In this document: piece after piece, positions 21,656 to 37,863 of the stretch
Layout of the letters: every line of letters starts with the position of its first letter
Position numbering within the stretch: position 1 is the first letter of the stretch
NCBI GenBank assembly: GCA_010093515.1
Contig: MU001691.1
Coordinates: forward strand, 199,813 to 263,812
Length of the DNA: 64,000 nt
From: Lineolata rhizophorae
Lineage: Eukaryota > Ascomycota > Dothideomycetes > Lineolatales > Lineolataceae
Direction of reading: 5' to 3'
Position numbers and translations under genes: made by a program
Notes under the pieces: model-generated
The model's input: the letters and a program-made list of their open reading frames with translations, nothing else
What the model was told of the DNA's origin: nothing
Database searches by the model: none

Positions 21656-22511
21656 ATGCTACCCCGCACCCTGCTCACGATAACCCTCTTGCCCCGACTC
21701 ACTGGCCTCTCTATTTGCAGACCTATCGTGGGGGCTGTTGATACTCTATCTGTATCAAGCAATTCTATCGGTTTTGCTGCCGGCACCGGCTTCCTTAACA
21801 CCGTCTTGACACCGGCGCCATGTCTCGTGGCACTGCCCCAATCTACAAGCACTATGCGAATGCTCTCTGGGTTCGTGTCTGCAAAGACTATGCGCTTGAC
21901 AACCGCGCCTTGATACTTGTACCACTAGATGGAGATTGTCAACTAGTCGCTCCGTGGCCGGGCGAAGATGTTAAGTTTTTCGAGCCATATCCTGGGTTCC
22001 GCTGCTTCGTTAGCGACGATGACGTATGTTCCAGCGTCTATTCAATCCAGAACGACGTCGGAAATTTCGAAGTTCTATATCCAGAGAGATTGGCAAGTCT
22101 AAAGAACTTTTAGCTTAATGATCTACAATCTTCTTCTTCCTCTTTTCCCACGGGGCCATTGTTTCTTCCTGCTATGGCGACGAACCACCGATTTTCGACC
22201 CTATCAGTACCGGGATTTCAGCTTCGAACGAGACTGTGCTCCTCTGTGGGAAGGAAAATTTTCGGGACTACCACGAGATTAAGGTTGCGCTGGGTATCTG
22301 CAGTGACTTGCCAGCGGGGTTGGCTAGCTGGACGCGATCATTCCGCCCGTGGGCGCCGCGATTGAGGTGCACATTGTATGATACCTTAGAGGCCTGCGAA
22401 GTGTAAACGGGAACGGCGACGATCGACGTGCCTGCTTACCATCATGAAGGTCTTGGACTCAAGATATCTAGGATCGTGTGCGATACATTCACAGACACTG
22501 AGTTGGCGTAG
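21656..22511 (+). pseudogene. Degenerate two-copy member of the six-cysteine secreted family
   Basis: A signal-peptide-like start (MLPRTLLTITLL) is followed by two stretches that keep the spacing of the secreted proteins at 23.7 and 25.6 kb. The first, about 21.88-22.05 kb, has cysteines 19, 22 and 8 residues apart, with the PW..DV..F pattern and a DDDVC end. The second, about 22.24-22.51 kb, has an LCGKENF start, a CTLY block and a tail resembling the last strand of the family, ending in a cysteine. Both lack the second cysteine of the pattern. The pieces lie in more than one frame. Some of this could be introns, but the locus more probably has at least two breaks and is decaying. Start and end are approximate. 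It shows that the family was once larger here. Confidence 0.55.
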
Positions 22512-23700
22512 ATAGGATCAATGGTGCTAAGGATACGGAATGCGAACAATATTGGGCTATGGTGGCCACAGAATGCTGAAGAGATACGAGCTAAGCCTCG
22601 CTAGAAAGAACTGAGCCAGAATAATAAACCACCAAACAACGATAGGCGCTTAGTCGACATTGTGTTCATCAAGTTCCGGGAGCCCAAGATCTCGTAGCTA
22701 GAGTGGTGATGCATTGAATCAACAAGGTTGAAGTTGTTCCACCATTGCCGTTATGTTTCAGTGTGACATTTTGGACCTGTGTGGCGGGCAGATACGGAAA
22801 TGCTGTCAAACTCTTCCCCCTTTCACGGCCACAGGGCAAGCACACAGGAATGTTCCCCAACATGCCCTGATGATTGTACGAGCCTAGTGGGGTCTCCTCA
22901 CTCTCGTATTTGGGTAGTATTGTGCCCAGGTCCCAACTTTACGTATCTCCACGCAAATATTCACATTAGTATGGCTTCAGTCAATTCACTCCCACAAATG
23001 AGGCGAGAGCTATAACGCAAGGACGTGCTCCTTCCCCCTCTTTCGAGGAAGGTTCGTAATCGACGCAAGACCGTGGTAGACCGTGCAGTCTACAAAGAAC
23101 GTGATATCGTCAAAATATCTTCGTTGACCGCTCGCCGGGAACCTAAATACTGTATCGGTCGAATAGAGATATAAATTGGTTTCGAAGGAGACATAGCCAA
23201 GTGGCCAAGGCTGTTCTTCGGTTCTGTCGACCCCTGAAAACTGTTGATGGACATAACTGGGATTTTTGTGAGGCCGTGCTTTATTCCACATAAACCATAG
23301 AACCAAGGGAGCCTAGAGCAAGGACACACGAAATCGAATTGTATAAGGTCTCGCCATTGACATGTGTGCTATATAGAGAGTGCGGGAAGGCATGTTTGCC
23401 CAAACCCCAAGCAGTAGCCGACCGCAGTCATGGGACAGCACTTACCGAGCTGCGCGAAGTGAGAAAAGGTATCAGTTAGATCTTGTGCTCTATGGTAGCA
23501 CGTGGCCATTGGTCGCATTAACCTAGAGCCGAACTGCCTGGTGCTTGCATTTCGCTTGCTGCAAGGTATACATTCTCTCCAATCTATTCATCTTGACATT
23601 TTCTTTCTTCCACCCCACACCCACAAACACTGTCCATCATACGCACGCCAAATTATCCTCCAGGAGAAGCTCGGCTTAGAGAGATCCACGGTCTCCAACC
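22512..23700. other. Intergenic region with no supported gene
   Basis: About 1.2 kb. Short open frames on both strands show no family resemblance. The final 150 bases before 23701 are pyrimidine-rich (TTTCTTTCTTCCACCCC type), as in a fungal 5' leader, and fit transcription of the secreted-protein gene that follows. Confidence 0.45.
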
Positions 23701-24078
23701 ATGAAGCCTTTCAACCTCATGGTTCTCTCCTTCATGGGCTTCGGCTTCGGCTTCGGCCGTCCGGCTGGCTCTCCTCAGGATCCTACCATCCCAACGGTGC
23801 ATGCGAAGATCTGCCAACTCCATAACTTCGCTGGCGATTGTTACGAGGATACTGCGCTCGCGAACGACTGCGCAGCCTTTAGGGCGCCTTGGGTGGACAA
23901 TGTGCACTCCTTCATCGCCTCCGCGGGCTTCATATGCACCTTATACGTGGACGACAAGTGCATCGATCACAACTATGGATACGCCGAGGATGGTCAAGGC
24001 CTTCCGAATGTAGACGACGTCCTTATTTCTGGGATGGATGTGGCGTCTTGGAGCTGCGGCCTTAATGACGGCACCTAA
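23701..24078 (+). CDS. Small secreted six-cysteine protein
   Basis: Not assigned to a named family. A single exon encodes 125 residues. The hydrophobic N-terminus (residues 1-19, with Gly/Phe repeats) looks like a signal peptide. The mature part has six cysteines at 38, 47, 57, 79, 87 and 119, spaced 9, 10, 22, 8 and 32. This is nearly the spacing of each copy in the protein at 25.6 kb. Motifs HNFAGDC, APW..NVHSF, GFICTLYVDDKC and ISGMDVASWSC suggest a compact beta-rich, possibly crystallin-like fold with disulphide bonds. It is likely extracellular. A pyrimidine-rich leader precedes the ATG. A role as an effector, antimicrobial or wall-associated protein is possible but not shown by the sequence. 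Confidence 0.8.
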   Translation: MKPFNLMVLSFMGFGFGFGRPAGSPQDPTIPTVHAKICQLHNFAGDCYEDTALANDCAAFRAPWVDNVHSFIASAGFICTLYVDDKCIDHNYGYAEDGQGLPNVDDVLISGMDVASWSCGLNDGT

Positions 24079-25602
24079 ACACCTTCGAGCCTCGACCCCG
24101 CCATCTGAAGCTAGTTTTTTGAATTCACATTTGCAAAGGAGTCGAGACAGTGCGAAGAAACCCAAAACACAGAAAAACATGCTGCTATGGAGAGAAGAAG
24201 GCAAGGAAGCGTGGCGGTGGTTCTCATGATACCCTACTTTTCAATTTCACTTCGACCTCAAGACATCATAGGCTAGGTAGTTCCTCAAACACTAGCTGAC
24301 AAGGCAAATCAAATGGCTTTGGTTGAATTCAACCTTTATTATTCATAGTCTATCAATGAACGCTATGAATTTGCTTGTGATGTACCACAGGGACATGATA
24401 CTTCCTGGAGTGCGTCTGCACTCTCCAGTTACACAAACGAGGTGTATCACACGATCCCACGAGCCTCCAACGCCAACGTGTATGACCTGCACACTTACAC
24501 ACATTGCGAACTCAGAAGGAGCCCCTAAGGGAAGGGCCGAAAAAGAAGCCTTTCTTATAAATACTTACATAGCAGATCTCTTCTAGGCAAACGGAGCGGT
24601 AAATGTCACGAGGATATTCCTGTCGGGTGGCGATCGCTTTCACTAAACTTTACCCGCACCATGCTTCGCGGCTGACATTAAATCGCAGTCCAACACGAAA
24701 CATGCCACATTGATGGGTCTAATTTGGCTTCCTACCAGATGCACCTACATTTTTGAACTCGAAATACTTGTTCAAGCTCCGGTACTCAAGCCGTTCTCTA
24801 GTTTATGTTGTCCCGGAGTCTGTGTAGATTTGGACCTGCCTACCTACCTACCTATCCAGATTCATACCTACCTGCGCAAGCGGGACGAGGGAAAAAAACT
24901 AAGCCATGGAAGGCCCCTGAAACCTGAGGCATGAGTTGTAGACGCGACTGCCACAAAATTGGCCCCGCCCTGGATGGCGTGCTGCATCCACGGTCTGGGC
25001 TTGCCATGGGCTGTGGTTCCTTCCTGCCCGAATGTTAAAGGAGAATCAGAAGCTGAGTTTTATGGCCAGTGTCTGTCGTAGCTGCAGTGAATGGCGGCAG
25101 TTCGTTGCTCGTTCCTGTTATGACGGCTTGTACCACAGCTGCGCCATGGAACGTTGTCGGCTGCCTACAATCTCATGCCCTTGATTGGCCCTCTATCATA
25201 CATGCACCTTCCAGTAGTAGCCGTGAATAGCTCGCACCTCGTTAATGGAGCGCATTCGAGCTCCATGTTCGAAGTGTGTGAGGGCCCCGATCCGCGGCTG
25301 CTGCCCAAGCCTTGCCAACGTGGCGCTTGCCGCTGATCTATAGGTAACAGCGAGAGACGCCTTGTGACTGCCACATCGAGAGATGTGATGTCAATGGGTC
25401 CAATTCACTGCAGCCACACCTGATCGGGGCAGGTACGCTTTGCTGTTGGGTATGTACTATAAAGCTGGCCCACCCCTAGTTTTTCCTCGATTCTCTTTTC
25501 AACCCACTCCACTTCTCTGCTTCCCGATCCTTCCCACTCTCACCCTTGTTTGTTCTTAATTTCCTCCTCTGTTGAGAATCTTCCACTCCAAAAGATCTCG
25601 AC
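24079..25602. other. Intergenic region holding the promoter of the triplicate secreted gene
   Basis: No gene was recognised. A short stretch of repeated CTAC/CTAC-like steps (CTACCTACCTACC) lies near 24.84 kb. The last 150 bases contain a TATA element and a long pyrimidine-rich leader directly before the next gene. Confidence 0.5.
25458..25463 (+). promoter_or_regulatory. TATA box of the triplicate secreted-protein gene
   Basis: TATAAA lies 140 bases before the ATG at 25603. It is followed by a CT-rich leader (CCTCGATTCTC and similar), the usual layout of strongly expressed fungal secretion genes. The assignment rests on position and sequence only. Confidence 0.6.
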
Positions 25603-26760
25603 ATGCAATTCACCAAGTTTGTGGGGGTTGCCCTTGCTGTCATCGGCCTAGGTACCTGCAATCCTATCCAGCCAGAGCGTTCGGCGCCCGCCGAGCAAAA
25701 TGACCTGGTCAACGTGGGAATTTGTGCAAGCGAGAACTACAAGGATTGCTTGTACTACGACATTCGCGTGACAAACTGCCTATATCTGAAGAGTGGCACG
25801 CCTGACTTAAAGTCGGTTCATATCCTCAGCAAGGGTGCAGTCTGCGTTGGCTGGGTCGATGCTCTCTGTGGCAGTGGCGACAACATTGTGATCCCGTACC
25901 CTGGGAATCCTCGCCTGGATAGTATGGACATCAAGTCGGTCAGTTGCTCGCCGGCTCCTGGCCTCGTTGCCGACGGGGCGAAGAGGGATGTCGCAAATGT
26001 CAAGGCTGTCTCCCACGGCGCCGACCTCGCTCGCGATACCGACGAGGCCAACAAAGTTGGACTGGTCGCCGTCGACATCTGTGCGAGCCGCAATTACGAA
26101 GACTGCCTCGCATACGACGTTCGCGTCACCCATTGCCTCTCACTCACGGACAGCAACTTTGCCCCTAGGTCCGTCCGCATCTATGAAGATGGCGCAATCT
26201 GCGTTGCTTGGGTAAGCAACGATTGCACTGGCGACACCAATCTACCAGTTGAAGCTCCTGGCAACCCCGATCTTGCTCAAGGTGACATCAAGACAATTTT
26301 CCGTTCCTTCAGTTGCTCTCCAGCTCCAGGTGACGAAACCATTGGCATCGAGTCTTTTCAGGCCGCAGTTGAAGCGCGCAACGATATGCCAGCGTCTGAG
26401 GCTGAAGAATTGGACGTCGAAATTATCGAGAACCCTGATCCTATCTCCCCATCAGCTGACGGTGCAGAACTCGAGGTTGAGATCGGCTTGTGCGCTAGTA
26501 CCAATTACCGCGACTGTCTCTGGCACACCATTCGCGTCACTAACTGCCTCTCTATCACGAACGGTTCGCTGAAGTCGATCACCATCCATACTCGTGGTGC
26601 AGTTTGTGTTTTATCGATCGACAAGACTTGCGGCAAGGGCAGCATCCTCCCTATTGGCTGGCCTGGAAATCCCGATCTTGTGAAGGATGGGTGGGATAGA
26701 CGCACTCAGTCTGTGAGCTGCTCACCAGCTCCTGGTGCTTCAACAGTTGAAGAGACTTAG
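25603..26760 (+). CDS. Secreted protein with three six-cysteine repeats
   Basis: Not assigned to a named family. A single exon encodes 385 residues, with a signal peptide at about 1-19 (MQFTKFVGVALAVIGLG). Three copies of one domain follow at about 38-120, 157-243 and 294-378. Cysteine spacings are 8-10-22-8-26, 8-10-22-8-30 and 8-10-20-8-30. Each copy has ICAS.NY.DC, an IRVTNCL-like strand, GA.C..., a PGNP.L turn and ends in SCSPAPG. The linkers are acidic or charged; a KR pair at 127-128 could be a Kex2-type processing site. The copies are clearly related in DNA and protein, so the gene grew by internal duplication. The same spacing in the neighbour at 23.7 kb shows common origin. Likely extracellular, possibly released as separate domains; biochemical function unknown. 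Confidence 0.85.
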   Translation: MQFTKFVGVALAVIGLGTCNPIQPERSAPAEQNDLVNVGICASENYKDCLYYDIRVTNCLYLKSGTPDLKSVHILSKGAVCVGWVDALCGSGDNIVIPYPGNPRLDSMDIKSVSCSPAPGLVADGAKRDVANVKAVSHGADLARDTDEANKVGLVAVDICASRNYEDCLAYDVRVTHCLSLTDSNFAPRSVRIYEDGAICVAWVSNDCTGDTNLPVEAPGNPDLAQGDIKTIFRSFSCSPAPGDETIGIESFQAAVEARNDMPASEAEELDVEIIENPDPISPSADGAELEVEIGLCASTNYRDCLWHTIRVTNCLSITNGSLKSITIHTRGAVCVLSIDKTCGKGSILPIGWPGNPDLVKDGWDRRTQSVSCSPAPGASTVEET

Positions 26761-29346
26761 ATGTTCAAGAGAAGACTTCGTCATACGATGGTTACATCAT
26801 GGCATGAGGGGTAGAATAAAATTGAGAATCAGAAGGTCGAAGGAGTTCTCTAGAGCGAACCGGTATTGGCGGAAAACTTTCAGTGGGTTCATATGGGGAT
26901 CGACTTGTCGGTGAGGTTTCATGAATACCCCTCGAAGCCAAGGCTCACCTTCATGCCTTTTGCCTGTCTACACTCTACTGCATACACTAGTCTAGCACGT
27001 AGCTTTTCAATCTATTTCACATGCTGGTCCGATCATTATTCTGTTTGTAGCCCAATAACTGGTGAAGGCTTGACTCTGCTCTTCGGTTGTCCAGCCATAC
27101 CCTCAGAATCCCTCCGTAAAACGTTGCGGCGACTCAAGCAAGATCACTGATATAACCAATTCAGACATAAAATATTCCTGACTTCATAGGGCTTGAAATA
27201 TTTTCATGCAGCTTTGAGTCAGCTACTTTGTTTTCACAGCAACAGCGCTGGTCTCTGTTAACCGCCAAAGAATGTTTTCAATTGTCTCCCCATAGAACGG
27301 GCATGACAGGATGTTGCGATAGCAGAAAACCACCTATCGACACGTCAAAAATGTTCCAAGATTAGTTTGCCCATATTTTGGTCAGTTGAAAGGAGATTTC
27401 CAGCATTTACGTTAGACTGCATGCCAAGATAGACTGATAGCTTCGCCAGCGGCCAAAGCCTCCGAGCCTAGCTGCTTACCCATCCACCTCCAGATGACCT
27501 AATGGCCGATCAAAGACAGCTAAACCCGTTATTTCGCAACGCATCTACCACTTTACCTTTGCCCACCAGTATTTATGTGCACTATGTATGCCGACAGTTA
27601 CAATACATTATTTTTTAGGCTCTTTGTTTGAACTTTGGCAAGGTACTGCGTCGTTGTGAAGCTGTGAGCAAGTCTGCTCCAAGCAATCATCCAGTCACAC
27701 TATGATTGTGGCCTTAGTTGGAGTTTGTAGCGCTCTCAATGACTCCAGTCCCCCTAGATTGTGCTTCGGATTTCGCCCTGGTTACTGCGACCTATGTCTT
27801 GCTCGCTTGAAGCTAGGGAGTGGGACCCACCGACACGACGCCGCCTCCACCACTAATTGCAATCATCTTGAAACTCAAGTTGTACCTGCCGTGTATTTAA
27901 ATGCATCCTATGGCTTTTAGGAAGTTAGACTCTTGTATCGACAAGCGCTCGGTTGACCCGCAAGGCCTTCTGTAAGGTTTACGCTCTGCAAGCAAGCTAA
28001 ACTTCCACACCAACCAGGCAAGACCTCCAACAAACCACCGTTCATGCTGTAACATTCAAATTTTTTTGGTGCTGTTGGGGTGATATACGGCATTTTACTA
28101 ATCCTTGGGTCTTCTTTACAGAGAGGAGTGGAGTGGCGACACGACCGGCATGTCTTGACCTCTGGCGGCGGGCGACTCGCAAGGCGAAGGAGAGAAACCA
28201 CGGACAGCCTTTCAACATACAAAAGCCTAGAAGTTCCTTTATCGAAGTTCGCCAGCACCTACCCTTTATCGACCCCCTCCTTTCCGAGCCCGCTTTTCCC
28301 TAGCAGCGTTGGCGATAAGTGCTATAGTCTGACGGCGTAGTGTACTGGTGGTTGCGTTGGTTGCTTCATCAAAAACACCAACTCCATACAGTACGACAAG
28401 GCGACAAGCTGGTGGAGAACATCCTTGTCATAGCAAGTTTATTAGCTAAGCCTCGGTCCCATTGAGGGGAAGTGTTTTGGAAGCTACTCCTTGCCCCACA
28501 AACATGAAGCTGCTGCTGGACGACAAAGAACTAAGCCTCCCACTGCCACCTGGAGCTGTCACTATTCTAGGTTTGCACAAGCCTCCGTATAGGACCTGGT
28601 GATACTGGGGCAGGCACGCGACGTGCTCTGAATTCTGCTTTGCCACCAGCAAGAATAGGGACCGGGGTGCAATAGATGCTGTATAGAAAACACTACAACA
28701 GTGAGGCAGAATAGGTGGGCGTACTGAAACTTGCGAATCTGTGACTAACTGTGAGCATTGTGGTATATGTGGCCAGAGCTCTAGGTTTTTGCAATTCCTG
28801 GTAGAATTGACCATGTGAATATGTTTGACATTCCAGAGTTTTCGTGCCTTACAATTCATTGGTCCAAGGGCCCACACTTACTTCCCTTAGTGGTGGGTGA
28901 CTGGAAGCCTCTATGGGGGCAGCAAGGTCCTGATGCACGGATAGTAAAATAGCCTTGGCTTCCGGCTCTGGCTGTTTCCCCTTGGAGTTTGTTTGGGTAA
29001 AGAGATCGTCATAAGTGACCCCTTTTCTTTTTAGTTCCGGCTATTCATAATGGGGCAAATTTTATGCTAATTATATTGAATGCCAGCTCCCAAATGTGTA
29101 TGCAACGCATATATAAATACTAGGGTTAGCCAGATTTCCTGAGTCCTTCTTGTTGCTTGGGCGCCCTCATTCTACTCTGTATCCTTCAAGTTCGCTCTTC
29201 TACAAGCGAATTCTTATCGAGCCGGAGGATTTCACTACTATTGCTTAATACAATCCCTTCAAGACTATCAAGGGCTATTCACCTAGCCCGCTTTCACCAT
29301 AACGACATCGTTTTAACTACCACTAAGATATTTTATGTAAAGAAGA
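26761..29346. other. Intergenic region with weak candidate frames only
   Basis: About 2.6 kb. A 72-codon frame at 27702-27920 begins with a short hydrophobic stretch and has six cysteines, but nothing else supports it. A 143-codon minus-strand frame near 28.45-28.88 kb is Ser-rich and unlike any family I know. The right end contains a TATA element for the next gene. Confidence 0.4.
29110..29117 (+). promoter_or_regulatory. TATA box upstream of the small membrane protein
   Basis: TATATAAA lies about 230 bases before the ATG at 29347. It supports a rightward transcript here, although the coding region it would serve is short and not certain. Confidence 0.45.
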
Positions 29347-29613
29347 ATGGATCAAATCCTCCAGCACATGCGAGAGTTTTGGCGTTGCCATCAGCGGAAA
29401 TTTTTTATCACTCTGGCATTTTTTAGCGGGATCGGGGGGGTTTTCTTCGTCTTTCTTGTAGTCCTTAATGTCATGGACTGCAACGAGTGTCAAGAATGGA
29501 TAAACGAGGTTGTCACCACTGAAGTTGTGGGACCGATTGCGCCCGTGACAGTAACTCCAAGACCATCACTGACCGCAATATTGGTAAGATTTCTTCCCGT
29601 TGGGCCCAATTGA
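29347..29613 (+). CDS. Hypothetical small single-pass membrane protein
   Basis: Not recognised. The frame encodes 88 residues: a basic N-terminus (MDQILQHMREFWRCHQRKF), a strong membrane segment at about 20-43 (FITLAFFSGIGGVFFVFLVVLNV), a short CNEC motif, then a Thr/Pro/Val-rich tail. A good splice donor (GTAAGA at 29584) sits inside the last part, so the real protein may continue in a second exon that I could not place. A TATA element about 230 bases upstream supports transcription. By the positive-inside rule the N-terminus would face the cytosol and the tail the outside. It lies among secreted-protein genes. No function can be inferred. Confidence 0.4.
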   Translation: MDQILQHMREFWRCHQRKFFITLAFFSGIGGVFFVFLVVLNVMDCNECQEWINEVVTTEVVGPIAPVTVTPRPSLTAILVRFLPVGPN

Positions 29614-30695
29614 ATTTGAAAGACTAGCAAGATACTACGATCTGGATGTGGGGACTCTGTTTCAGAGATGTTAGGTGTTATCGCATGAAGTTTGAGACTG
29701 AGAACGCTTCACGTGTTTTTTCCGGCTTCTAGCATTGTATTTTATCTTGTATTCTTAATTTGGGCATCTTGATATCAACTACTCTTTCTATACTATACTT
29801 GAACTGGCGTAGCGCACTCTATGCTGCGCATAACATGCATTTGTTGCCTTGACCTCCTTTCAAACACTATTATCACGCCTGGATCGTTAACAAGCCACTT
29901 AACCTATAATAGTTGGTATTGCGGTGACGATTTGGCATCATCCAAATGCAATGTGCTTATTTGGTTACAAATGGCAATGGACAAGAAATGTATAGATAGA
30001 TGTCTTTCACCGCTTATAACAGTATATTAATTTAAATAGGGTAACTATAGTATTAATAGCACATCACATAGATCTAAGGGTCAAGCGTATCAACAATACA
30101 TCTTCAGCGAATTCAACTTTGCTATTGATGCCGCATTATGTCTACTGCTTAGTGATGTGCTTGGTCATATGTTGTGAATGTAGGACGATTGATTTTTTTT
30201 AAATAATAGTAATAATAAATAAATAAATAAGTAAAAAGAAAAGAAACTCCCAGCCTGGATGTAAATACATCCTCACAAATTATTTAACGACAAGCCTTTG
30301 ATTCACTTACAGGCGAAATTATCTAAAGGAAGACAATGACTATATGCTATCCACTATTTGAAACAGGAGGACTGCTGCGTGGATAATGGGAAGTTAGTAG
30401 GTGAGTGGTTCAAGTGTGTTGCCTCGGCTTTCTAACGTGAATAGCTCGGAAAGTGCGGCCGTGAGCCTTCCACAAATGCAAGGCTACTAGACGCTTATAC
30501 AACCGGAGTGCTCCGCGTCGATGACTCTTGCCGAAATATCTAACTTCTCTACGTAAACCACCGTGTTTGCCATTTCTTTGCGTGTAATATCCCGAGCGAA
30601 ATTCCTTTTAGATTCTCCCACAACACACCACCGTCTCCCGCATACGTTGAGGGATCAGCTACCAGATACGCTTCTCTAACACCTACTTTTGCAAC
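29614..30695. other. AT-rich intergenic segment
   Basis: About 1.1 kb without coding signal. A low-complexity AATAAATAAATAAATAAG stretch lies near 30.2 kb. The last 100 bases are the probable leader of the stalked secreted protein. Confidence 0.5.
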
Positions 30696-31762
30696 ATGAA
30701 GACACGAAACCTCATCTTCTTGGTTGGGGCCTTGTTGAGGAGGGCCGTCGGGGCTGCCGCAGCCGCTTTTCCACATGTTGACGAAGCAAGCACCAGCACA
30801 AGCTACTCACAGTCCTCTACGATCTTCGGCTCGGAGGGTAGGTTGTAATCCATCTTTGCGAGATATCATGCTAGAATTGAATAAATTAACAAATACTGAC
30901 TGTTCCACCGCACTGTGTTATAGTTATACCTAGCCTCGTACCGTCCTCTCGCAAGCCTAGTAACGTTTCATCTTGGAGTTGGCCAGTTCTTAGCAACCCT
31001 GGAACTTCGACTTCGTTGGCAAGCTTCGCGATGCCACCCGATTTATTCAATGGAACGTACAACGGAACTACGGCCCTCAGCACGTCGGCACCTCTGCCAA
31101 CGGCATTTTCAACCGGGTCGCTGGACGAACCAACTACGTTTAAAATGTCTTTCTCCCTAGTAATAACAAGCGGGTCAACAATGGAGTCATCTTTACCGGT
31201 TGTCCCTCCGACCAGTTACCGGTCTTCGGACTCACTGATTCAAGAGCCGAGCTCACTCACTCCGGCAGAATCGACCTCGTCGAAAGTACCTAATAGCGCC
31301 GTCCTTGTGACCATCACAACCACGGTGCCCGCAACCAGTACAATCACAACCGGTATAGAGGCGGCATCTTCTTCTTCAGCACCTCTTCTCAAGCGTGTGC
31401 CGGAGGAAAAACCACGAGTCTATGTCGAATTGTATGATCACTTCGACTTCACAGGGATAATAATCGGCTTGAACGTAACCCAGAGGCCATACTGTAACCC
31501 TGTGCCGGCAGATATCCTCAAAGGTGGTGTTCGATCTGTGAAGCCACATCATATATACGGCCGAGAGACCCTGTGCGGATTTCTAACGGACCAGCAGGAG
31601 GACTGCATGGCTCTTCCTCCCGCTGTACTGGTGTCTGGTGATGAACCCAGCGGACACGTGGCACCATTGGAATCCTCGGGTACCATTGACAAGTTTTGGT
31701 GCCAGTATGCTCCTGAACCCCGTCCGAGTTTTAAATCTCTCATGAATGTCCCCAGACAGTAA
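30696..31762 (+). CDS. Secreted protein with Ser/Thr-rich stalk and crystallin-like C-terminal domain
   Basis: Two exons, 30696-30837 and 30924-31762, give 326 residues; the intron has donor GTAGGT and acceptor TTATAG and keeps the frame. Order: signal peptide at about 1-25 (MKTRNLIFLVGALLRR, then an Ala run), a Ser/Thr/Pro-rich segment at about 30-200 that looks like an O-glycosylated stalk, then a folded domain at about 208-318. The domain starts VYVELYDHFDFTG, a tyrosine/phenylalanine and glycine pattern seen in beta/gamma-crystallin-like strands. It continues with C..VP, GGVRSVKP, LCGFLTD and a final FWC. It keeps four cysteines with looser spacing than the genes at 23.7 and 25.6 kb, so relationship to them is probable, not certain. 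Extracellular or wall-associated location is inferred from the signal and stalk. Confidence 0.75.
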
Positions 31763-32634: not shown

Positions 32635-33696
32635 CTACGCTGTAAACTTCACAATTCGCTTATTCTTTCCATGCCCGGCACGACGCCTGAAACGACGTCT
32701 CAACTCAGTGCAGCTGGTAGGCTCCTCCTCATCGTCGGCTGGATCAGAGTCATCATCCTCGGCACCGTCGCCCGTGTTGTCGCCATCGCCAGAGCTATCG
32801 CCGCTGCTACCGCCAGCAAGAAGCGCTGGCCCGGGAACTTCATACGTGTCAAGATCAGAGCTGTAGATATTGAAGAAGATACCTGGGTCGGTCGCAGTGT
32901 ACAACTCGATACCAAGTGTCCCGGAGGGGAGCGTGTTGGTCCCGGAACCGGTAATTTCGAGGTTGATACACTATTGATTGTCAACGGACGATTCGCCATA
33001 ATGCTAAAATGGTAAGAACGCTTGGGGATGTACCTGCGGATAATTCTGTGCGCCGCCCTCCTGATTTCCCTCATGCAGTGCGATAATCTCGTGGCGCAGG
33101 ACGTAGTTCCCAGGTGCGATGCTCGCCGGAATAGTTAGAACCCAGGTGTTGTCGTTCGCAATGAGATCATCTGTGGCCCAGGTGCCCGGATTGGAGGACC
33201 CGTCAGTAGGACCGACGCCACTAATTTTGGTGAATTCAAGCTCCGTTTTGGAGACTTGGGAGCAGTCGCCGTTGCAAGGCGCAAGGTAGTCAATGATGGG
33301 CCCGTGATGAGACTCCGGCCAGGTAGTCCATTGAAGCTCAATAGAGTCTAGTGTAGATCGTCAGCCCGAGACGCTCCGAATAAGACAAGGTTCCAATTCA
33401 AAAGGTAAAAATCGACTGGACTTACCGCCGGCTACGACAGGAACGCTAGTGCCGGCCGGCGAAGCACCCTTGTGGCAGATGATATTCTCATCTGCATAAT
33501 CCGATACAGCGACGAATCCGTTGTCAAGGTAATCGGTGGTCCAACCCGCAACTGTTGGAGGCGGGTTCTGGAACTGAAATGATGGATCGTAGCCTTGGAA
33601 AAAGGAACCTCCAGCTACTATGCCGGACACGGTACCATGAGCGTAGGCCGAGGAGACCAGTGCGCCGAGAATACCAATGAATTTAGAGGCAGGCAT
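32635..33696 (-). CDS. AA9 lytic polysaccharide monooxygenase
   Basis: Copper enzyme that cleaves cellulose and related beta-glucans oxidatively outside the cell. Exons read right to left: 33426-33696, 33034-33347 and 32635-32970, giving 306 residues. The signal peptide ends after Ala19 (ALVSSAYA), placing His20 at the mature N-terminus, the first ligand of the copper histidine brace. The second histidine is probably in NIICHKG. The family signature [23 protein letters not shown] holds the conserved His, Gln and Tyr. The catalytic domain ends near residue 245. An acidic Asp/Ser/Gly-rich linker and a short arginine/lysine-rich tail follow, where many relatives carry a cellulose-binding CBM1. 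All active-site residues seem present. It lies next to other secreted-protein genes and is read toward the stalked protein. Confidence 0.93.
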
Positions 33697-35684: not shown

Positions 35685-37863
35685 TCACTGCTTCTTGCAC
35701 AGCCTAGTACCATACTCAATGACTTCCCAATCCTCCGTACCGGGCGTAGACTTAGCGTAGAAGACACCGTTCGGGTCCCAAGTCTGCTTGATCTCCAGGA
35801 GCCTTGGGTAGTTGTCTCCCCAGTACGTCTCTTGCCAGTTCGGCTCGTTGACATCGCCCTACGTAATTGATTAGCTAAGACTCTTTAAACCGGAAAGGGA
35901 CAAAAATGAGCAGCTCGTACCTCGTTGATGTAGGACGCCGAGTTAGGCGACGCATCCCTCAGCTTCTGGCCCAGAGTATTTGTAACCATATCTTCTATCT
36001 CCTTCCGCTCCTCCCACGACATGCCCGGCTCCGCTGAGACGATGTACAGGTTCGCGGTCGCCGCTCTGCGCCATGCTGGATGCGTCGCGCTATAGTCTTC
36101 CTGCGGAATTGCGTGGCCTGGGTTGACGACGTGGCCGCCCATGACGGCGGCGCTGGCCGCAGCCCCTCCACCGCCGAAGCCGCCAAAGCCGCCACTGCCT
36201 GCACCGATAACTTCCCTGATGGCGTCGACAATCTCGTCGCCGTGTTGTTCGATATCCTCGGCGACAAATAGGCGGCCGCCAACGAGAGACTGCTGGTCGC
36301 CGACGTTGTTGGTCTTGGAAAACATGTTATACCAGAGGTCATAGAAGTTGCTGAACTCCCGAATTTCGTGCTGGTATTGGACGCCATCCTGGTCCAACTT
36401 GTCGAGGAAAGGTTGGACGACCTAAATAGTGTAAGTAGGTTTGGCCGCGGACTTTAGATTCCGAAAATTTGTAGAAAAGACTACGTGACGAACCTGGGTG
36501 AACTCTTGCTCTGTCATGTTGGGCCCAACTACGGGTTGAATGTTGAGGTTGCCATTCATCAATGCGAACCAAACGTACATGCCAGCCTCCGTGAAGTGGT
36601 TGGCCATGTTATGGAAGTCGGCGACCCCCGTCCAGAACGTCTCATCATAACCAGTAATGTTGACGCTCATCCCTATATTACTTAGTTCCCACTTCTGAAG
36701 ACACCTTCCGTTGGAGTCGAGTCACTTACCAGTACAGGTCATTTCCGGGTGAGTTTTGATAGTCACAGATGTGAGAACACCGAAAGTCGATGGGCCGCCG
36801 CCCTTGAGCGCCCAGAACAGATCAGGATTCTCCTCCGCGTTGGCAGTCGTAAGGTCGCCATCCGCAGTAACGACCTTGAACTCAAGAGCCTGGTCCGAGC
36901 CTAGATTGTCTAGTAAGTTAACTTGTCCGGACAAACATCAACATTTAAGATCTTACCAAGTCCGTGGTATCCGGCCAACGGACCATGTCCACCGCCCTGG
37001 ATAAATCCGCCAGCGATCCCGACAGTCTATTTATAGGTCAGATAATGAGCGTTTCATTTCACTCTGACTTGTCCACTTACAGGGCACTCGCCGCCAACCA
37101 CAACGACCGGCGGATCCAGCTGGTTTGCCGCCGGATAAAGCTGACTATGCTGGACACCTGATCCCAGAGTGACCGCGCCTCCAGTCCAATCGCCGGGCCC
37201 ATCATAGCTCGAAGTAAACTCGATGCTGTTGAGGGCGTGGGTATTGATGGCCAACGAGCCGTACCCGGTGGAGCGGCCCATGAAGTCGTGGCCTGTGTTG
37301 CGAATCACCAGGCGAAGGTTGTGCTCGGCGGCGAACTGGACACCCGCCTGGACGTGCTCTGCCGTCTTGGCCATGACGACGTACTCCGGCAGGAAGCCGA
37401 GGGTGCAGGTGCCTTGTGCGTTCTGTGCAGGCTCACACGTGGTGTTTGAGTAGAAGGGCCACATGAGGGTGGCGGGCTGGTCGTCACTGGGGTGGAATGA
37501 GCACTTGTTGCTTTCTGCTATAGTCTGGAAGATGACTTACACCCACTCGGCAACTCCATAGCCTTGTACGGCCTCTTGGCATTCCTGCTGATTGTACGTA
37601 GCTTCAACGTTGGCGCCGTGGTTCTGGTAGCAGGGAGCACCGGCCGGCGCATTAGCAACTAGGTTGCCGTCGACTGCCGTGTTGAGTTCGTCCCAGGCCG
37701 ATTGCTCCGGCCAGCAGTCGTCCGAATTATAGCATTTGCACGAGTAAGTCGCGCCGTTCCACGTCGTGGTCGGAGCGTCATTTTGGCGCTTTTGGATGCC
37801 ACCACGGCCCGCCGCGGCGTTCGTGGCGAGTAGAAGCGCCGAAAGAAGGTGCTGAAGACCCAT
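35685..37863 (-). CDS. Secreted FAD-linked oxidoreductase, berberine-bridge type
   Basis: Flavoprotein oxidase of the PCMH-type FAD-binding family, which oxidises sugars, phenolics or secondary metabolites with oxygen. Seven exons read right to left: 37541-37863, 37081-37486, 36957-37026, 36730-36909, 36494-36672, 35921-36421 and 35685-35858, giving 610 residues. The signal peptide is about 1-19. The FAD-binding part contains EYVVMAKTAEHVQAGVQFA, the histidine-bearing RNTGHDFMGRSTG (probable covalent flavin site), VVVGGECPTVGIAGG, and GGGHGPLAGYHGLG, where a cysteine is not evident, so single rather than double attachment is likely. The C-terminal BBE motif YWGDNYPRLLEIKQTWDPNGVF is complete. 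A Gly/Ala-rich insert sits in the middle of the substrate domain. No biosynthetic cluster genes are adjacent; substrate unknown. Confidence 0.93.

What the first reader, a model, noticed from the sequence alone, without database searches (positions are those of the whole stretch)
21656..31762. A clustered family of secreted proteins sharing a six-cysteine framework
The protein at 23701-24078 and each of the three repeats in the protein at 25603-26760 have six cysteines spaced about 8-9, 10, 20-22, 8 and 26-32 residues apart. They also share matching motifs at each position: NY or NF before the second cysteine, a hydrophobic strand before the fourth, and an Ile/Val-rich strand before the last. 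Two decayed copies at 21.8-22.5 kb keep most spacings, and a looser relative ends the stalked protein at 30.7 kb. All begin with a signal-like sequence. I do not recognise a named family. The pattern suggests a disulphide-bonded, beta-rich, possibly crystallin-like fold. Effector or antimicrobial function is inference.
Basis: partly seen in the sequence, partly recalled or inferred. Interest (0 to 1): 0.85.

Follow-up and report, generated by a model that had tools for sequence, protein, structure and literature searches.

The report
Secreted disulphide-rich fungal crystallin-like proteins
A fungal genome carries a small family of secreted-looking, cysteine-rich proteins, one with three domains in a row, whose predicted shape is that of eye-lens crystallins, a fold already known among fungal secreted proteins but here in an unusual form.

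The parts
23701..24078 (+). P0001: single-exon gene, 125 aa, signal-like N-terminus plus one six-Cys domain (C1 at 23812, C6 at 24055)
   Evidence: ORF; framework; reciprocal best match with P0004 in own genome, E 0.0024 and 0.005
25603..26760 (+). P0002: single-exon gene, 385 aa, signal-like N-terminus and three six-Cys domains in tandem
   Evidence: ORF; repeats; pS 0.58-0.81 against pN 0.34-0.37 between repeats, i.e. purifying selection
25708..25962 (+). domain 1 of P0002
26065..26331 (+). domain 2 of P0002
26476..26736 (+). domain 3 of P0002
25981..25986 (+). Lys-Arg pair (Kex2-like site) in the linker between domains 1 and 2 of P0002
   Evidence: cleavage is inferred. No dibasic pair lies in the linker between domains 2 and 3; one Arg-Arg lies inside domain 3
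21820..22113 (+). probable decayed copy 1: open piece with cysteines at the spacings of C1, C3, C4, C5, without C2 and C6
   Evidence: weak profile support
22173..22406 (+). probable decayed copy 2: piece with cysteines at the places of C1, C3, C4, C5; tyrosine at the C2 place; stop codon after C5
   Evidence: weak profile support
22407..22511 (+). same frame beyond that stop, with one cysteine about where C6 would be
   Evidence: profile gives no support for this piece on its own
30696..31762 (+). gene of the 'stalked' protein: predicted exons 30696-30837 and 30924-31762 (intron GTAGGT...TACTGAC...TATAG), 326 aa, Ser/Thr-rich stalk, Lys-Arg at 31391-31396, C-terminal domain 31415-31720 with 4 Cys; relation to the family not shown
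   Evidence: no profile support; single copy in own genome

Best explanation
P0001, the three domains of P0002 and the dispersed paralogue P0004 form one family of secreted proteins whose domain is a divergent beta-gamma-crystallin fold (two Greek key motifs) locked by three disulphides. Most likely pairing: C1-C2 and C4-C5 brace the first hairpin of each Greek key, C3-C6 staples a shared sheet (inferred, topology recalled). Cysteines have replaced one of the two aromatic residues of each Greek key signature and the calcium motif is lost, so the domain is stabilised by disulphides in the oxidising extracellular space and not by calcium. The proteins most likely act outside the cell as compact, protease-resistant binding domains, against competing microbes (as the crystallin-fold killer toxin HM-1/WmKT does) or against a host; P0002 presents three such domains, possibly partly separated by Kex2 cleavage. 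Shown: framework, homology, fold of one member's model. Inferred: disulphide pairing, secretion, cleavage, target and role.
Confidence: 0.6

Rival explanations
1. Same fold, but a developmental or stress-protection role: abundant structural or spore/fruit-body protein like spherulin 3a, Protein S or Neurospora abundant perithecial protein, not an antagonist or effector.
For: The best Foldseek matches are spherulin 3a, an archaeal crystallin and Protein S, with APP domain 5z6e at rank 7; full APP (5z6d, 204 residues) is longer than one domain, so multi-domain forms exist in fungi.
Against: The calcium motif of microbial crystallins such as those tied to calcium-dependent stress roles (PMC3551895 passages) is absent in 5 of 5 domains; six cysteines plus a signal-like N-terminus point to the outside of the cell; fold similarity says nothing of function.
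Confidence: 0.25
2. A different small beta-rich disulphide fold that AF2 pulled towards crystallins for P0004 only; the window proteins share the cysteine pattern by convergence or through another fold.
For: P0001's own model did not give a crystallin; repeat 2 is reached by 64 of 2000 Cys-fixed shuffles against the P0001+P0004 HMM.
Against: Profile-profile match over 83 columns at 94.9%; five domains align with all six cysteines in register; the five AF2 models of P0004 have similar confidence, 69.7-73.7; crystallin-like half-repeats are in the window sequences themselves.
Confidence: 0.12
3. An ordinary orphan-effector family member with nothing unusual: one of the widespread fungal crystallin/killer-toxin-fold secreted proteins, the three-domain form being a simple tandem duplication. 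(Not exclusive of the best explanation; it differs in emphasis.)
For: The beta-gamma-crystallin/WmKT fold is one of eighteen families found in over 80% of 20 Pezizomycotina species (PMC10462633, section 6 read); [quoted passage not shown]
Against: P0002 (385 aa with its signal) is longer than the under-300-aa mature limit of that survey, and I saw no report of three such domains in one secreted fungal protein in the searches made (listings, with passages of the papers named).
Confidence: 0.45

Closest known systems
Crystallin/WmKT-fold family of orphan candidate effectors in Pezizomycotina (PMC10462633)
   Same: secreted-looking, small, no Pfam domain, predicted double Greek key beta-gamma-crystallin fold
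   Different: sequences of those members were not compared here; P0002 has three domains and exceeds the size limit of that survey
HM-1/WmKT killer toxin of Cyberlindnera mrakii (PDB 1WKT per PMC12715866)
   Same: secreted, all-beta crystallin-type fold, one domain as in P0001 and P0004
   Different: no sequence match found; killing activity untested; not among the 50 rows shown; P0002 has three domains
Neurospora abundant perithecial protein APP (PDB 5z6e, 5z6d)
   Different: its calcium sites, cysteines and secretion were not compared here; the title of 5z6e is cut off after 'in the Ca2+-'
Spherulin 3a (1hdf) and Protein S (1nps)
   Same: fold; best and third-best Foldseek matches
   Different: associated with stress in calcium-dependent form (PMC3551895 passage); the calcium motif is absent here; their cysteines were not compared
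IPSE/alpha-1 of Schistosoma mansoni (4el6)
   Same: beta-gamma-crystallin-fold protein without sequence relatives outside schistosomes (PMC8718004 passage); secretion recalled; Foldseek E 3.1e-2
   Different: egg-stage protein of an animal parasite, disulphide-linked dimer; no sequence relation shown

Membership tests
beta-gamma-crystallin superfamily (fold level) | domain of two Greek key motifs in a beta sandwich | tested here: met
beta-gamma-crystallin superfamily (fold level) | the same fold in a model of the window protein itself | tested here: inconclusive
   P0001 model pLDDT 51.5 with no match; P0002 repeats not modelled as query
canonical beta-gamma-crystallin (PF00030) | match to the Pfam Crystall profile | tested here: not met
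   not among Pfam matches of P0001, P0002, P0003, P0004; 0 matches of PF00030 in the whole own genome, while 2 of 14 control genomes ring
canonical beta-gamma-crystallin (PF00030) | Greek key signature Y-x4-Y/F-x-G in both motifs (as given in PMC3551895, which also says the signature varies in diverse members) | tested here: not met
   0 of 10 half-motifs in the exact form at the aligned places; Cys at position 0 (motif 1) or +5 (motif 2)
calcium-binding microbial crystallins (spherulin 3a, Protein S type) | N/D-N/D-x-x-S/T-S motif (PMC3551895) | tested here: not met
   0 of 5 domains; 0 matches in P0001-P0004 whole proteins
crystallin/WmKT-fold orphan candidate effectors (PMC10462633) | predicted secretion, mature size under 300 aa, no Pfam domain, crystallin fold | tested here: inconclusive
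   no Pfam domain: met, chance-level matches only; size met by P0001 (125 aa) and P0004 (142 aa), not by P0002 (385 aa); secretion judged by hydropathy only
yeast killer toxin HM-1/WmKT | kills sensitive yeasts through the cell wall / beta-1,3-glucan synthase | not testable with these tools
   activity known from PMC12715866 passages; no assay possible
yeast killer toxin HM-1/WmKT | sequence or fold match | tested here: inconclusive
   no sequence match in PDB searches; not among the rows shown, which list only 50

The most novel reading that the evidence does not exclude
A lineage-restricted family of calcium-independent, disulphide-stapled crystallin-fold secreted proteins in which cysteines took over the signature aromatic places of both Greek keys, and in which P0002 is a three-headed pro-toxin or effector precursor, partly cut by Kex2 into crystallin-fold killer modules, with live, fused and decaying copies side by side in one gene-poor stretch.
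Probability: 0.25. Interest if true: 0.6.

Novelty: new variant of a known kind. Interest (0 to 1): 0.38.

Why it matters
If right, it gives a sequence handle (six-Cys spacing plus half-repeat) on a fold class that the fungal survey seen here grouped by structure prediction, and a natural three-domain form whose processing and target can be tested with one gene. It also suggests how disulphides can replace both the aromatic signature and calcium in a crystallin domain.

Tried and rejected
Relatives by sequence: three searches of the 5.8-billion-protein collection (P0002, P0001, seven-row alignment A4) returned only the window's own proteins (candidates 5025, 3, 186). Scans of bacterial/archaeal genomes and viral contigs with P0004, and of viral contigs with P0002: 28, 9 and 58 pattern matches, none confirmed. 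Plasmids with P0004: one chance match, E 0.2. PDB by sequence: chance matches only, e.g. E 0.29 to a clostridial toxin chain (not fetched), E 0.51 to an acetone carboxylase, E 0.091 to a WD-repeat protein. Further own-genome matches judged chance: C38 (E 0.065, in the Ser/Thr-rich stretch of P0003, not read further), C19 (E 0.0019 over 27 residues; the ORFs listed show no such domain), C11 (E 0.18; ORFs). The DNA pattern for the C-x-L-Y motif found P0004 alone; its backward control found one place. Because the own genome can be searched only by single proteins, families or patterns and only the best candidates are scored, further paralogues may be missed.

Repeat-induced point mutation as a cause of decay: dinucleotide ratios over 12-40 kb show no clear sign (TA/AT 0.57-1.14; decayed copies 0.84 and 0.76); rejected. 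No direct or inverted repeats of 40 bases or more in 13000-39000. I considered filing the 31.4 kb C-terminal domain as a family member because it carries one canonical-looking Greek key signature (Y-x4-F-x-G) after a Lys-Arg site; rejected for lack of profile support, left open as a possible distant crystallin-like domain. Yeast-killer-like two-domain fusions in rusts (PMC9816061, section 16 read) belong to the cluster that holds Ecp2 (cluster 12), not shown to be crystallin; kept only as a parallel. Many text matches on 'crystallin' were merely 'crystalline'.

Full report
What is there. The window is a 64-kb stretch of contig C22 of an unnamed 31-Mb, 48-contig genome. It looks fungal: genes recognised by domain include an AA9 lytic polysaccharide monooxygenase (in two open pieces, probably split by an intron) at about 33.0-33.7 kb, an FAD-binding oxidase at about 37 kb, a Pumilio-family protein and a ribonuclease H1 N-terminal domain. 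By eye (recalled, not searched) the ORFs at 8.4-10.5 kb and 39.1-42.5 kb look like a plasma-membrane proton ATPase and an RNA polymerase III second-largest subunit. Between them lies a stretch of lower G+C (42-54% over 16-36 kb, against 55-65% at 12-16 kb) with few long ORFs, in which the finding sits. The organism was not identified.

The observation. P0001 (23701-24078, 125 aa) has six cysteines with 8, 9, 21, 7 and 31 residues between them; the three repeats of P0002 (25603-26760, 385 aa) have 7/9/21/7/25, 7/9/21/7/29 and 7/9/19/7/29. Repeats 2 and 3 are 52% and 55% identical to repeat 1. A pattern written from these spacings (post hoc, allowing the 22 of P0004 below) matches 4 places in 489 six-frame ORFs of 60 aa or more in the window, which are exactly these four domains, and 0 of 20000 full shuffles of P0001 without its first 20 residues. 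Between the repeats synonymous sites have changed more (pS 0.58-0.81) than non-synonymous sites (pN 0.34-0.37), the mark of purifying selection. So the genes are real and the framework is not chance.

Homology beyond cysteines. Directly, P0001 against the three-repeat profile is weak in hhalign (probability 3.9%, E 0.011, 18 columns). The three-repeat HMM gives P0001 14.7 bits; 3 of 2000 shuffles that keep the cysteines in place and 0 of 2000 full shuffles reach it. The bridge is a fifth member: searching the own genome with P0001 found, besides itself, one place on contig C15 (E 0.0024), an open frame coding for 142 aa (P0004, L005:1351-1776 minus) with cysteine gaps 8, 9, 22, 7, 29. Searching back with P0004 found P0001 (E 0.005) and one chance place (E 0.18), and repeat 3 of P0002 touched P0004 (E 0.25). 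The repeats' HMM gives P0004 17.5 bits (0 of 2000 in either shuffle), and with P0004 added, P0001 gets 29.1 bits (0 of 2000 Cys-fixed). Profile against profile, P0001+P0004 match the repeats at 94.9% probability, E 4.1e-8, over 83 columns. Results against: the P0001+P0004 HMM on single repeats is reached by 8, 64 and 0 of 2000 Cys-fixed shuffles for repeats 1, 2, 3. In the alignment of all five, all six cysteines are in register.

Other claimed copies. Two stretches at 21.8-22.5 kb keep parts of the pattern. The open piece 21820-22113 has four cysteines with gaps 18, 21, 7; 22173-22406 has four with gaps 17, 22, 8, then a stop, the frame going on to one more cysteine. These are the spacings of C1, C3, C4 and C5 with C2 lost (the intact C4-C5 gap is 7). 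A post hoc pattern for them matches only these 2 places in 489 ORFs, and 1 and 6 of 20000 full shuffles. Profile support is weak: 8.4 bits (14 of 2000 Cys-fixed, 0 of 2000 full) and 9.8 bits (0 and 1 of 2000), a last piece -1.1 bits; hhalign 1.1% and 1.8%; the second piece found no family member in the own genome. They are probably decayed relatives. The C-terminal domain of the gene at 30696-31762 (31415-31720) has four cysteines with gaps 26, 9, 31 and gets 0.5 bits against the repeats (190 of 2000 Cys-fixed shuffles do as well) and -0.4 bits against all five domains (780 of 2000), hhalign 0.3%; no other copy was found in the genome. It carries one canonical-looking crystallin signature and a Lys-Arg just before it, so it may be a distant crystallin-like domain, but this is not shown.

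Anatomy. The crystallin signature is Y-x4-Y/F-x-G and the calcium motif N/D-N/D-x-x-S/T-S, one of each per Greek key (PMC3551895 passages). The exact signature is met in 0 of 10 half-motifs, the calcium motif in 0 of 5 domains. In the model C1 and C2 sit on the first two strands, C3 on the third, C4 on the fifth, C5 after it, C6 on the last (cysteine columns, strand list). With the known crystallin topology (recalled) this suggests C1-C2, C4-C5 and C3-C6; this was not tested.

Mechanism. Signal-like N-termini and even cysteine numbers in the domains point to secretion (hydropathy only; 29 of 101 ATG ORFs pass the same cut, so weak). Loss of the calcium motif with gain of cysteines suggests stability outside the cell without calcium. 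A crystallin-fold secreted fungal protein with a known role is HM-1, which binds cell-wall mannoproteins and leads to inhibition of glucan synthase (PMC12715866 passages); IPSE/alpha-1, an egg protein of a parasite, has the same fold (PMC8718004 passage). I therefore commit to an extracellular binding role, antagonistic or effector-like (confidence 0.6), with a developmental or stress role like APP or spherulin as main rival (0.25). A Lys-Arg between domains 1 and 2 of P0002 may let Kex2 free the first domain; there is none between domains 2 and 3.

Known or new. PMC10462633 (section 6 read; passages) predicted structures of orphan secreted proteins in 20 Pezizomycotina species and found the beta-gamma-crystallin/WmKT fold among eighteen families present in over 80% of species; PMC8146201 (passage) names one such protein in a wheat pathogen. 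So the kind is known. What I did not see in the papers searched (listings, and the passages named here) is a six-Cys sequence family with three domains in one secreted fungal protein. The 5.8-billion-protein searches found no relative, but without a positive control for fungi this cannot be read as rarity. Verdict: new variant of a known kind; interest 0.38.

Noticed in passing
L005:1351-1776 (minus), own genome C15:91621-92046: Dispersed paralogue P0004 (142 aa) with the most canonical-looking crystallin features of the family, the only other copy that the sequence searches made here found in the genome.
   Followed up: yes
33004-33681 (minus): AA9 lytic polysaccharide monooxygenase gene in two open pieces (probably an intron between), next to the cluster; suggests a plant-biomass-degrading or plant-associated fungus.
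   Followed up: partly
37054-37533 (minus) and flanks: FAD-binding oxidase exon (Pfam FAD_binding_4); by eye the gene continues in other open pieces between about 35.5 and 37.9 kb, two of which gave no Pfam match.
   Followed up: partly
29347-29613 (plus): Small ORF of 88 aa with one strongly hydrophobic stretch and a Thr/Val/Pro-rich tail; no Pfam match; may be the first exon of another membrane or secreted protein.
   Followed up: no
31391-31396 and 31415-31720 (plus): Lys-Arg site right before the four-Cys C-terminal domain of a Ser/Thr-rich secreted-looking protein; that domain starts with a canonical-looking Y-x4-F-x-G signature.
   Followed up: partly
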